NCBI GenBank assembly: GCA_019236485.1
Contig: JAFAIY010000549.1
Span: forward strand, 1 to 12,585
Reading direction: 5' to 3'
Source of the DNA: Comamonas sp.
GTDB lineage: Bacteria > Pseudomonadota > Gammaproteobacteria > Burkholderiales > Burkholderiaceae_C
Length of the DNA: 12,585 nucleotides
Below the pieces are notes generated by a model. The model was not told the DNA's origin. It searched no databases and was given only the letters and a program-made list of their open reading frames with translations. Made by a program: the position numbers and the translations under genes. Shown here in pieces: positions 7,599-10,003 of this stretch. Within the stretch, counting starts at the first letter, position 1. Every line of letters begins with the position of its first letter.

Positions 7599-8282
7599 AT
7601 GACCTCTCTGCCTTTGACTTTTCTTGCGCGTCCCGCCCGGCCCGCAGCCGGCCAGGAGGCCTGGCTGCTGGTGTTGATGCATGGCGTGGGCAGCAATGAA
7701 CAGGACCTGTTCGGCCTGGCGCCCCATGTGCCGCCGCAGTTCCATGTGCTGAGCCTGCGCGCGCCCTTCACCATGGGCCAGGGCGCCTATGCCTGGTTCC
7801 AGTTCTCGGTGGGGGCGGACGGCACACGCCATATCAACGTGCCCCAGGAGGAGCAGGCGCGTGCCCTGGTCCAGCAGAGCGTGGCCAGCGCCGCGCGGCA
7901 GCTGGGCATTCCGGCCGAGCGCGTGGTGCTAGGTGGCTTCAGCCAGGGCGGCATCATGAGCCTGAGCCAGCTGCTGACCCAGCCGCAGAGCCTGCGCGCG
8001 GCACTGGTCTGGCACAGCCGCCTGCTGCCCGAAATCGCTGCCCTCCATGCTCCTGCATCGGCTTTTGCGGGCAAAGCTGCCTGGGTCAGCCACGGCACTT
8101 ACGACAATGTGATTCCGCTGACCAGCGCCCATGCGGTGCGTGACCGGCTGCGCGCTCTGCCGCTGCAACTGAGCTATCACGAGTACCCGGGTGCGCACGA
8201 GATCCGGCCCGAGGAGCTGCGCGCCAGCATGCGCTGGCTGCAGGACTTGACGCTGCCGGCCGCGGACGCGGCCTTTCAGTGA
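7599..8282 (+). CDS. YpfH-like carboxylesterase/phospholipase family hydrolase
   Basis: The 227-residue product belongs to the phospholipase/carboxylesterase branch of the alpha/beta hydrolases (relatives: E. coli YpfH and acyl-protein thioesterase-like esterases). The pattern is LVLMHGVGSNEQDLFGLA (25-42) for the oxyanion region, LRAPFTMGQGAYAWFQ (53-68), the nucleophile Ser115 in GGFSQGG, Asp169 in HGTYDNVIP and His200 in PGAHEI, giving a complete triad. No signal peptide is present, so it is a cytoplasmic esterase; the natural substrate is unknown. The ATG at 7599 follows CGGAG at a six-base spacing. It lies 106 bases after arfB, so it may have its own promoter, and it overlaps the opposite-strand SMR gene by seven bases at the 3' end. 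Confidence 0.9.
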   Translation: MTSLPLTFLARPARPAAGQEAWLLVLMHGVGSNEQDLFGLAPHVPPQFHVLSLRAPFTMGQGAYAWFQFSVGADGTRHINVPQEEQARALVQQSVASAARQLGIPAERVVLGGFSQGGIMSLSQLLTQPQSLRAALVWHSRLLPEIAALHAPASAFAGKAAWVSHGTYDNVIPLTSAHAVRDRLRALPLQLSYHEYPGAHEIRPEELRASMRWLQDLTLPAADAAFQ

Positions 8283-8608
8283 CCTGCGGTCTTCGAGAAC
8301 AGATTGATCACCAGCACGCCCGCAATGATCAGCCCCATGCCGATGACGGCGGCCCAGTCCAGCTTCTGGCCCTGCCAGAAATAGGCCACCGCGGAGACCA
8401 GCACGATGCCCACACCGGACCAGATGGCATAGGCCACGCCCGTGGGAATGGTGCGCAGCGTGAGCGACAGAAAGTAAAACGCCACCGTATAGCCGGCAAT
8501 GGCGACTGCCGTGGGCGCGAGCCGCGTAAAGCCCGCGGCCTTGGCGAGAAAGGAAGTGGCGATGACCTCGGCCACGATGGCCAGGCCCAGATATACAAAG
8601 TTCGTCAT
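8276..8608 (-). CDS. EmrE-type small multidrug resistance (SMR) transporter
   Basis: The 110-residue product has the length of E. coli EmrE, four predicted membrane helices (about 4-21, 32-52, 58-76, 84-104) and the key residues at the same positions: the proton- and drug-binding Glu14 (AEVIATS), Tyr40, Tyr60 and Trp63 in AYAIWSGVGIV. It should act as a dual-topology homodimer in the inner membrane, exchanging protons for quaternary ammonium or other lipophilic cations. IWSGVGIV favours the drug-exporting EmrE subtype over the guanidinium-exporting SugE/Gdx subtype. The frame is open further upstream, but the homologous N-terminus begins at the ATG at 8608; no strong Shine-Dalgarno sequence precedes it. 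It is convergent with the esterase gene, with stop codons overlapping and no terminator between them. Confidence 0.93.
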   Translation of the reverse strand: MTNFVYLGLAIVAEVIATSFLAKAAGFTRLAPTAVAIAGYTVAFYFLSLTLRTIPTGVAYAIWSGVGIVLVSAVAYFWQGQKLDWAAVIGMGLIIAGVLVINLFSKTAGH

Positions 8609-8749
8609 GGCAGGCAAATGTAGTGGTCGCGGCGCAGCAGGTCTGCTCAGGCCTCGCAAACCCTTGCAATGCCCAGGCCTGCCACTTGCCAAGGCCGTAG
8701 CGGCTGGCGCACATTGGAGCTGGGTTCCGCTTCCATGGAGGACGCTTCG

Positions 8750-8863
8750 ATGCCGCAGTTGAATGCACGGCCGCCCGGTGTTCCCGAGCCCGTGGATGAG
8801 CCGCAGGATGTGCCACCGGGCGAGGTTCCGCCCCAGCCCCAGGATATGCCGCCGAATATTTAG
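8750..8863 (+). CDS. Proline-rich 37-residue hypothetical protein
   Basis: ATG 8750 is preceded by a strong Shine-Dalgarno sequence, GGAGGA (8737-8742), at a seven-base spacing. The 37-codon frame ends with TAG at 8861-8863. About a third of the residues are proline, arranged in acidic PxP-type units (VPEPVDEPQDVPPGEVPP). There is no signal peptide, no membrane segment and no cysteine, so it is probably a small disordered acidic protein. The function is unknown. The stop codon lies in the loop of the hairpin at 8847-8871. Support for coding comes from the ribosome binding site and the coherent repetitive composition only. It has no obvious operon partner: the gene downstream is on the other strand. 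Confidence 0.6.
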   Translation: MPQLNARPPGVPEPVDEPQDVPPGEVPPQPQDMPPNI

Positions 8864-8871
8864 CGGCGGCA
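8847..8871. repeat. Hairpin over the stop codon of the proline-rich ORF
   Basis: TGCCGCCG (8847-8854) and CGGCGGCA (8864-8871) form a perfect 8-bp stem around a 9-base AT-rich loop that contains the TAG stop. No T-run follows on either strand. It lies between the convergent proline-rich ORF and map, so it may protect 3' ends or act as a weak shared transcript end. Confidence 0.55.
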
Positions 8872-8890
8872 CCAGGCCGTTTGAGCGGGC

Positions 8891-9697
8891 CTAGATGGCC
8901 GGGTACTCGCCCGTGCCTTCGGGCCAGGGCGTCAGCACCTCGAAGCCGGTTTCGGTCACCAGCACCATATGCTCCCATTGGGCGGAGAGCGACTTGTCGT
9001 TGGTGATCACGGTCCAGCCATCGGGCAGCTCGCGCGTGGCGGCCTTGCCCGCATTGAGCATGGGCTCGATGGTGAAGATCATGCCGGGCTGCAGCAGCAG
9101 GCCCTGGCCGGGCGTGCCGTAGTGCAGCACCTGGGGCTCGTCGTGGTAGACCTTGCCTATGCCGTGGCCGCAGTATTCGCGCACCACGGAAAAGCGCTCG
9201 CGCTGGGCCACGCTCTGGATCGCATGGCCCACATCGCCCAAGGTGGCGCCGGGCTTCACGGCGCGGATGCCCGCGACCATGGCCTCATAGGTGGTGTTGG
9301 TCAGGCGCTTGGCCAGATTGCTGGGCTGGCCCACGTAGTACATGCGGCTGGTGTCGCCTATCCAGCCTTCGGGCGTGGTCACGGCCACGTCCACGTTGAC
9401 GATGTCGCCGTCCTTGAGGGTCTGCTTGGCATCGGGGATGCCGTGGCAGACAACATGGTTGATGGAGGTGCACACGGTCTTGGGAAAACCGTAGTAGCCC
9501 ACATTGGTCGGGGTGCAGCGCAGCTCGTCGACGATGTAATCGTGGCACAGCTTGTCCAGATGCTCGGTGCTCACGCCGGGCTGGACATGAGGGGTGAGCA
9601 TGGCCAGAACCTTGGCCGCCAGGCCGCCGGCCTTGCGTGAGAGAAAGATGTCGCTGGCGTCGTGTATGGGCACGGCCTTCTGCTTGCCGCGCTTCAT
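8891..9697 (-). CDS. map: Type I methionine aminopeptidase
   Basis: This metalloenzyme removes the initiator Met from nascent proteins whose second residue is small. The 268-residue product has the pita-bread fold signatures: GYYGFPKTVCTSINHVVCHGIP (67-88) with catalytic His85, NVDVAV with metal ligand Asp103, GDTSRM with Asp115, EYCGHGIG with His178, TIEPM with Glu211 and QWEHM with Glu242, so all five metal ligands are present. Relative to E. coli there is one extra residue between the two Asp ligands and a short C-terminal extension. The ATG at 9697 has a near-perfect Shine-Dalgarno (AGGAGGT, 9703-9709, five-base spacing) inside the end of the upstream ParD-like gene, which it overlaps by four bases. 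The context is not the usual rpsB-tsf neighbourhood of the housekeeping copy, so this may be an additional map gene. Confidence 0.95.
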   Translation of the reverse strand: MKRGKQKAVPIHDASDIFLSRKAGGLAAKVLAMLTPHVQPGVSTEHLDKLCHDYIVDELRCTPTNVGYYGFPKTVCTSINHVVCHGIPDAKQTLKDGDIVNVDVAVTTPEGWIGDTSRMYYVGQPSNLAKRLTNTTYEAMVAGIRAVKPGATLGDVGHAIQSVAQRERFSVVREYCGHGIGKVYHDEPQVLHYGTPGQGLLLQPGMIFTIEPMLNAGKAATRELPDGWTVITNDKSLSAQWEHMVLVTETGFEVLTPWPEGTGEYPAI

Positions 9698-9954
9698 TGC
9701 AGACCTCCTACCAGGCGTACGGGGCGTGGGCGGCGCAAGGCCTCGGCCTCCTGGCTGGCCGTGGGCTGCAACTCGCGCTCGGCCTCCTTGAGCAGCAAGG
9801 CGCAGATGTCTGCGTAATTGAGCTGCGGGTGGTGTTCGGCGATCTGGCCCACGCGCAGCCAGTGCTCGGCCTGGGCGTTGATGGAGCGGCCCAGGGCCGC
9901 GCTGGAGAGCCGGATCTGGTCATGCAGCCGGTCTGAAATTTTGACGATTCCCAT
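9694..9954 (-). CDS. ParD-like ribbon-helix-helix protein
   Basis: The 86-residue product begins MGIVKISDRLHDQIR and continues RSINAQAEHWLRVGQIAE, the pattern of the ParD-like antitoxin family. Residues 3-7 should form the DNA-contacting beta strand, 10-22 helix 1 and 24-40 helix 2 of a dimeric ribbon-helix-helix. The region of about 45-60 is a further helix (NYADICALLLKEAE), and the tail from about residue 62 is Arg/Pro-rich and likely disordered. It most likely binds DNA and represses its own operon; the palindrome at 9974-9990 is the obvious candidate site. No ParE or other toxin is adjacent. Instead its TGA overlaps the map ATG by four bases. No Shine-Dalgarno precedes ATG 9954; the leader may be very short. 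Confidence 0.88.
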   Translation of the reverse strand: MGIVKISDRLHDQIRLSSAALGRSINAQAEHWLRVGQIAEHHPQLNYADICALLLKEAERELQPTASQEAEALRRPRPVRLVGGLQ

Positions 9955-9972
9955 GGGCGCGCATCATACTGC

Positions 9973-10003
9973 TATATACGTTTCGTATATTGACAAACGC
10001 CAA
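9973..10003 (-). promoter_or_regulatory. Tentative promoter of the parD-like/map operon
   Basis: On the minus strand TTGGCG (10003-9998) and TATATA (9978-9973) are separated by 19 bases, slightly more than ideal for a housekeeping sigma-70 promoter. Initiation would fall about 12 bases before the ParD-like ATG, in keeping with its missing Shine-Dalgarno. The -10 hexamer overlaps one arm of the 9974-9990 palindrome. TTGTCA (9996-9991) is an alternative -35 box but has no -10 at a suitable distance. Confidence 0.3.
9974..9990. promoter_or_regulatory. Operator-like palindrome before the ParD-like gene
   Basis: ATATACG-TTT-CGTATAT is a perfect inverted repeat with 7-bp arms and a 3-base centre, placed 20 bases upstream of the ParD-like start codon and over the likely promoter. 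Ribbon-helix-helix antitoxins usually repress their own operons by binding such sites. Assignment to this particular protein is inferred from position. Confidence 0.6.

What the first reader, a model, noticed from the sequence alone, without database searches (positions are those of the whole stretch)
8891..9954. ParD-like ribbon-helix-helix gene fused in operon with a methionine aminopeptidase
A ParD-like gene overlaps map by four bases (ATGA), and map has a strong Shine-Dalgarno inside the end of the parD-like frame. In parDE loci the antitoxin gene comes first and the toxin second; here map takes the toxin position. Both frames and all MAP metal ligands are intact. Inference: a self-regulated module that adjusts N-terminal methionine excision, or an antitoxin-like protein that binds or regulates this MAP paralogue. 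The map copy is not beside rpsB, suggesting a second, conditionally expressed enzyme.
Basis: partly seen in the sequence, partly recalled or inferred. Interest (0 to 1): 0.72.

Follow-up and report, generated by a model that had tools for sequence, protein, structure and literature searches.

The report
Antitoxin-like repressor with spare methionine-trimming enzyme
A small protein related to bacterial antitoxins sits with a second copy of the enzyme that trims the first amino acid from new proteins, in many bacteria, and probably switches that spare enzyme on and off.

Summary
A PF11903 (ParD_like) gene overlaps an intact type I map gene by ATGA on the minus strand of a Comamonas-like draft genome. 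In 80 genomes carrying PF11903, 46 of 87 ParD_like genes directly precede a MAP, and all 46 genomes have a further MAP. Of 10 unpaired relatives' partners tested, 8 are ParE-like toxins: MAP really occupies the toxin slot of an antitoxin-derived module.

The new element is the promoter. TATAYR-N3-YRTATA half-sites, often tandem at 11 bp, precede 53 of 63 MAP-paired genes (shuffles 0.09), and none of 26 unpaired ParD_like, 20 unpaired map or 9 map genes of genomes without ParD_like. In the window's draft genome the site occurs once, here. Best reading: a dedicated autorepressor of a second, active MAP. A MAP-neutralising antitoxin is unlikely: the tail common in unpaired relatives is absent, and three same-genus species keep this map without ParD_like.

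All 63 paired proteins begin Met-Gly at one fixed distance from the core, so the repressor may itself be a MAP substrate and report MAP activity. That is untested. Ten searches of an open-access library listed no paper on this pair.

The parts
9694..9954 (-). ParD_like (PF11903) gene, 86 aa, MAP-paired subfamily starting MGIVKIS; predicted ribbon-helix-helix autorepressor
   Evidence: Pfam 3.9e-30; the 63 MAP-paired and 26 unpaired proteins examined lie on two sides of a branch with 100/100 support
8891..9697 (-). map2, second type I methionine aminopeptidase, 268 aa, catalytic residues intact
   Evidence: TIGR00500 298.5 bits; ligands D103, D115, H178, E211, E242 and H85, H185
9694..9697 (-). 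four-base overlap ATGA of the parD-like stop and the map2 start
   Evidence: sequence; the same -4 overlap in 30 of the 63 paired loci
9703..9709 (-). Shine-Dalgarno AGGAGGT of map2, inside the parD-like frame
   Evidence: sequence
9974..9990 (.). predicted operator ATATACG-AAA-CGTATAT, perfect inverted repeat
   Evidence: unique in the window and, in its 15-base form, in the draft genome; strict motif in 53 of 63 paired upstreams
9963..9968 (-). -10-like box TATGAT ending 8 nt before the parD-like ATG, no Shine-Dalgarno: transcript predicted leaderless
   Evidence: such a box in 20 of 143 upstreams, all 20 without a Shine-Dalgarno-like word; the consensus promoter scan found no minus-strand promoter here
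9937..9954 (-). codons of MGIVKI: invariant Met-Gly start of MAP-paired ParD_like
   Evidence: Met-Gly in 63 of 63 paired and 80 of 80 named relatives, 77 of them shown paired

Best explanation
This is a two-gene operon in which an antitoxin-derived, probably ribbon-helix-helix protein represses its own promoter and thereby controls a second, catalytically competent methionine aminopeptidase. The ParD-like dimer binds TATAYR half-sites (inverted, 3-bp spacer, often repeated every 11 bp) just upstream of the -10 box, shutting off parD-like and map2 together. When repression is lifted, map2 is translated from its own Shine-Dalgarno and adds to or replaces the housekeeping MAP. Shown by computation: the pair, its conservation, the second-copy status, the operator and its link with this subfamily alone among the groups compared, and intact active-site residues. 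Inferred: fold, DNA binding, repression, MAP activity, and the inducing condition, which is unknown.
For: Pair in 46 of 87 PF11903 genes in 80 genomes, each with a further MAP. 77 of 80 named loci paired; of the other three one has map interrupted by an assembly gap, one meets a contig end, one truly lacks map. Public annotation shows 'ParD-like family protein' followed by 'map' in the four plasmid regions opened. Operator: 53 of 63 paired upstreams against 0.09 in shuffles, 0 of 26 unpaired ParD_like, 0 of 20 unpaired maps of paired genomes, 0 of 9 maps of genomes without PF11903; 55 of 80 in the later named set; 56 of 80 in a set thinned to under 60% identity, shuffles 0.015; two sites 11 bp apart in 62 of 68 pairs. 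One site in the draft genome. Map2 of three same-genus species without PF11903 has no operator either. Of 10 partners of unpaired relatives tested, 8 are ParE-like toxins.
Against: No binding or expression data. The monomer model found no ribbon-helix-helix match in the PDB, nor did sequence or profile searches; the fold rests on Pfam ParD_like and weak FitA-like_RHH hits (best 0.0035, 9 of 29 members). 10 of 63 upstreams lack the strict site, 7 also the loose one; in the named set 25 of 80 lack the strict and 23 the loose one. The motif was defined after seeing the first loci. No consensus promoter was found on this strand.
Confidence: 0.8

Rival explanations
1. The repressor is also a sensor of MAP activity. 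Its initiator Met sits where the first DNA-contacting residue of the strand would be, and Gly-2 makes it a MAP substrate. Trimmed protein represses; when total MAP activity falls, untrimmed protein cannot bind and map2 is switched on.
For: Met-Gly in 63 of 63 paired proteins, in 80 of 80 named relatives and 8 of 8 plasmid and viral loci. The core Ile (Leu or Val in three) is residue 6 in all 63; in 26 unpaired relatives it is residue 7 (14), 8 (9), 10 (1) or, with uncertain starts, 5 (2), and residue 2 varies (A 13, S 8, P 4, G 1).
Against: Invariance may come only from DNA contact or folding; ten other positions are invariant too. All 26 unpaired proteins also have small second residues, so trimming is general. 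One of the two scan patterns behind the named set contained MGI. The placing of Met-1 at a contact position is by eye against CopG recalled from memory; no structure supports it.
Confidence: 0.18
2. A true toxin-antitoxin pair or protein complex: the ParD-like protein binds MAP, inhibits it or uses it as co-repressor, as RelE does for RelB.
For: Gene order, short overlap and family membership are those of a type II module. Within the Comamonas-like group the C-terminus is alike: 11 of 63 paired proteins share RRPR.
Against: The ExYxF tail of 12 of 26 unpaired relatives is in 0 of 63 paired ones, whose lengths run from 66 to 91 residues (alignments). Map2 persists without the partner in three same-genus species. 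In the best tree the paired MAPs lie in two lineages, although one clade including the nested partnerless maps is not rejected (p 0.075).
Confidence: 0.1
3. Accidental or selfish linkage: map was captured by a mobile antitoxin cassette and the pair spreads without a regulatory role.
For: 159 of 72,556 plasmid records have a ParD-like match, one of four opened plasmids is conjugative with IS26 nearby, and four viral contigs carry it.
Against: Operator, N-terminus and MAP active site are conserved across divergent loci, no record of 50,697 phages matches, and regulator and operator are missing together.
Confidence: 0.05

Closest known systems
ParD_like/ParE-like type II toxin-antitoxin modules (PF11903 with PF15781)
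   Same: Same antitoxin family, first-gene position, short overlap with the next gene.
   Different: Toxin replaced by MAP; ExYxF tail absent; the operator of the MAP-paired genes not found upstream of 26 unpaired ones; N-terminus fixed at Met-Gly.
Bacillus subtilis map and yflG (PMC1266368: abstract and Discussion read)
   Same: Two active type I MAPs, one essential, one dispensable and weakly expressed, with a possible weak repressor (YvoA).
   Different: YvoA is linked there to N-acetylglucosamine metabolism and is not described as a partner gene in the same operon in the parts read.
PF11903 proteins beside zeta/PezT-like toxins (PMC5728571, PMC6362051: passages read)
   Same: Same Pfam domain upstream of a second gene.
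   Different: Partner is a zeta-type toxin; [quoted passage not shown]
Small ribbon-helix-helix autorepressors such as CopG, Arc, MetJ (recalled)
   Same: Short protein, inverted half-sites about one helical turn apart.
   Different: Controls an N-terminal-processing enzyme; fold not confirmed here by structure.

Membership tests
PF11903 ParD_like | Pfam profile match over the cut-off | tested here: met
   104.1 bits against 23
Ribbon-helix-helix fold | Strand-helix-helix dimer fold | tested here: inconclusive
   AlphaFold monomer pLDDT 86 with helices only, no PDB match with E under 0.001; weak FitA-like_RHH profile hits
Type II toxin-antitoxin | Downstream gene is a toxin | tested here: not met
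   It is a type I MAP; no PADLOC defence match for either protein. That this MAP is not toxic was not tested
Type II toxin-antitoxin | C-terminal tail of the unpaired, largely toxin-linked relatives (its toxin-binding role is inferred) | tested here: not met
   ExYxF in 12 of 26 unpaired, 0 of 63 paired; F nearly invariant in the 16-member alignment A2, no shared tail in A1
Type II toxin-antitoxin | Second gene not kept without the first | tested here: not met
   Partnerless map2 nested in the window's clade in three same-genus species
Type II toxin-antitoxin | Promoter with palindromic operator | tested here: met
   By sequence only
Type II toxin-antitoxin | Toxicity neutralised by direct binding | not testable with these tools
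   bench test needed
Type I methionine aminopeptidase | TIGR00500 over cut-off and five metal ligands | tested here: met
   298.5 bits; ligands in 63 of 63 paired MAPs

The most novel reading that the evidence does not exclude
A self-reporting control loop for N-terminal methionine excision: the repressor's own start, Met-Gly-Ile, is both its DNA-contacting end and a MAP substrate, so loss of MAP activity (metal shortage, a natural MAP inhibitor) leaves Met in place, releases the operator and switches on a spare MAP. It would be an enzyme's activity read directly by its repressor, built from an antitoxin.
Probability: 0.17. Interest if true: 0.87.

Novelty: new variant of a known kind. Interest (0 to 1): 0.63.

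Why it matters
Methionine aminopeptidase is usually treated as constant housekeeping. A conserved, dedicated switch for a second copy would mean that many Pseudomonadota adjust N-terminal processing, and would matter for reading genetic and inhibitor studies of MAP. It also shows an antitoxin family turned into an ordinary gene regulator with an enzyme in the toxin's place. Annotation as 'ParD-like antitoxin' would be misleading for this whole clade.

Tried and rejected
Fold search with the monomer model found nothing useful; sequence and profile searches of the PDB found no relative of the ParD-like protein. Rfam found nothing in the window at gathering thresholds. The consensus promoter scan gave no minus-strand promoter here: a TTGTCA upstream of the operator looked like a -35 box, but it is 22 nt from the TATGAT box, too far, so I dropped it.

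Paper searches, ten in all, listed no paper on this pair; most hits I saw only as listings, and one search listed 15 of 17. Passages were read in PMC5728571, PMC7354421, PMC6362051, PMC3948609, PMC11980606 and PMC6504116. The single hit for MAP plus ribbon-helix-helix (PMC3948609) has the two genes in unrelated parts of a fosmid. I hoped that PMC11481867 (passages and section 10 read) would tie map dispensability to a second copy. It lists map among genes 'not ancestrally essential' in Enterobacteriaceae and gives no reason in the parts read. The pair is present in Klebsiella records, and no place in 5426 E. coli genomes covers 80% of the Klebsiella-type pair. That is only suggestive.

I considered that the operator base choice might follow residue 5 (Lys or Asn) of the regulator. 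It does not: both groups (129 and 14 rows) mostly use TATACG and TATATG. I considered two separate origins of the pairing. The best tree has two MAP lineages, and one clade for the 63 is rejected (p 0.0017), but not with the three nested partnerless maps added (p 0.075, run without the two distant rows L120 and L121), so it stays open.

Full report
What is in the sequence. On the minus strand, a ParD_like gene (9694-9954, 86 aa, PF11903 E 3.9e-30) is followed by a type I map gene (8891-9697, 268 aa, TIGR00500 298.5 bits). They share ATGA, and AGGAGGT precedes the map start from inside the first gene. The five metal ligands and two histidines of the MAP site are present. The genome is a draft of 672 contigs, 87% complete; its nearest named loci are Comamonas and Delftia. 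It holds one further MAP over the cut-off, on contig C243, next to a glnD gene, and no further PF11903 gene was found.

The pair is conserved and comes with a second map. A phylum-wide sample of 398 genomes gave 109 with PF11903 (which scored at most 14 candidates per genome). I searched MAP in 80 of these 109; of the 29 left out, two (G002, G006) have loci that show the pair (L019, L006) and 27 were not tested. Joining the two tables, 46 of 87 PF11903 genes lie less than 400 bp before a MAP on the same strand, in 46 genomes. All 46 have another MAP over the cut-off: 45 have two, one (G357) has three. Of the 34 genomes with unpaired PF11903 only, 32 have one MAP over the cut-off and two have none (G121, 93% complete; G266, 78%). 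In 80 genomes without a PF11903 match, taken, mostly in handle order, 8 have two MAPs over the cut-off, 71 one, 1 none. The Fisher value ignores relatedness and is only descriptive. Of the other three, L127 has map interrupted by an assembly gap, L163 ends 172 bases after the gene, and L193 has neither map nor operator. The named loci include Pseudomonas, Burkholderia, Massilia, Pandoraea and Achromobacter. Annotation on plasmids of Polaromonas, Klebsiella (two) and Pantoea shows 'ParD-like family protein' directly followed by 'map'.

What the rest of the family does. I examined 26 unpaired PF11903 loci (six, twenty taken). In most the next gene is about 90 aa long and overlaps by 1-8 bases. 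Of 10 such partners tested, 8 are ParE-like toxins (PF15781), one is zeta-like, one has no match. In a tree of 89 ParD_like proteins the 26 unpaired and 63 MAP-paired fall on two sides of a branch with 100/100 support (few columns, and the program warns of long branches such as L074 and L025). The MAP-paired group thus looks like one clade of an antitoxin family with MAP in the toxin's position. An ExYxF tail occurs in 12 of 26 unpaired and 0 of 63 paired proteins (alignments). In 11 of 63 paired proteins, all of the window's kind, the tail is alike (RRPR), which is against a total lack of constraint.

The operator. Upstream of the window's parD-like gene lies ATATACG-AAA-CGTATAT (9974-9990), found once in the window (0 in 200 shuffles) and, as TATACGNNNCGTATA with up to one mismatch, once in the whole draft genome (the reversed control pattern occurs 5 times per strand). 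The pattern TATAYR-N3-YRTATA occurs in the 80 nt before 53 of 63 paired genes (dinucleotide shuffles mean 0.09, maximum 1), in 0 of 26 unpaired ParD_like genes, 0 of 20 unpaired maps taken from 19 paired genomes (300 nt), and 0 of 9 maps from 8 two-map genomes without PF11903 (300 nt). It was chosen after seeing the first loci and fixed there; in the later named set it occurs in 55 of 80, and in 6 of 8 plasmid and viral loci. Over all 143 upstreams 108 have it, and in 80 upstreams under 60% identical 56 have it (shuffles 0.015). Two sites in one upstream are exactly 11 bp apart in 62 of 68 cases, 31 of 35 in the thinned set. This is the layout expected of cooperating ribbon-helix-helix dimers (recalled). 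In L019 both arms carry matching changes.

Natural experiments. Three same-genus species (G004, G009, G010) without a PF11903 match have a map that nests in the window's map2 clade; their upstream regions have no operator. L193 has a ParD-like gene but neither map nor operator. In viral contig L207 the map reads away from the ParD-like gene, with half-sites next to the latter. So regulator and site travel together, and map2 is kept alone, which speaks against a toxin role.

MAP lineages. In the tree of 92 MAPs (63 paired, 20 unpaired from paired genomes, 9 from genomes without PF11903) the paired ones form two groups of 33 and 30 rows, the second nested among unpaired MAPs. One clade for the 63 is rejected (p 0.0017), but not when the three nested partnerless maps are included (p 0.075). 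Partner exchange or two recruitments are possible but not proven.

Translation. In 20 of 143 upstreams, among them Comamonas, Delftia and Acidovorax and the window, a TATRAT box ends 6-9 nt before the start codon, and none of the 20 has a Shine-Dalgarno-like word; 59 of the other 123 have one (patterns chosen after seeing the window). The parD-like transcript may be leaderless there, while the window's map2 has a strong Shine-Dalgarno.

The N-terminus. All 63 paired proteins begin Met-Gly, with the core Ile, Leu or Val at residue 6 in all 63; two use TTG or GTG before the Gly codon. All 80 named loci also begin Met-Gly (one of the two scan patterns contained MGI, so part of this set was selected for it, but 15 are MGLVKI). 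The 143 rows hold 139 distinct proteins, and the 8 plasmid and viral loci agree. In the 26 unpaired proteins the core residue is number 7 (14), 8 (9), 10 (1) or 5 (2, L072 and L073, where an upstream start is possible), and residue 2 is A 13, S 8, P 4, G 1. Aligned by eye with CopG as recalled, Met-1 of the paired proteins would stand at the first DNA-contacting position. Gly-2 makes the protein a standard MAP substrate (established rule of small second residues). This suggests, but does not show, that MAP trims the repressor that controls it.

How it most likely works. The ParD-like protein represses its own promoter; map2 is co-repressed. On induction map2 supplies extra or substitute MAP. 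Shown: gene anatomy, conservation, second-copy status, operator linkage. Inferred: fold, binding, repression, activity, inducer. The B. subtilis case, in which a second MAP (YflG) is active but barely expressed and weakly repressed by YvoA (PMC1266368, abstract and Discussion), is the nearest functional parallel I found.

Novelty. No paper on this pair was listed in ten full-text searches of an open-access library (given in Tried and rejected); most subscription papers are not covered. The parts are known kinds; the combination and its operator appear new.

Noticed in passing
window 9955-9968: TATGAT box 8 nt before the parD-like ATG without Shine-Dalgarno: probable leaderless mRNA; such a box in 20 of 143 upstreams.
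   Followed up: partly
L207:700-1180: Divergent arrangement: map reads away from the ParD-like gene, with TATAYR half-sites next to the ParD-like start.
   Followed up: partly
L022, L023, L026, L027, L057, L059 upstream regions: These unpaired PF11903 genes carry another palindrome-like sequence around CTACAATTGTGG or CTACAAATGTAG, so the two branches may have different operators (seen by eye).
   Followed up: no
G357 (L086, L110, L111): A genome with three type I MAPs, one of them ParD_like-paired.
   Followed up: no
L203: Pair on a conjugative IncFII Klebsiella plasmid near IS26; 159 plasmid records have a ParD-like match, 95 of them Pantoea.
   Followed up: no
window 8276-8872 minus: Small multidrug resistance (SMR) transporter gene next to the operon, on the same strand; its listed frame has an N-terminal extension before the SMR domain.
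   Followed up: no
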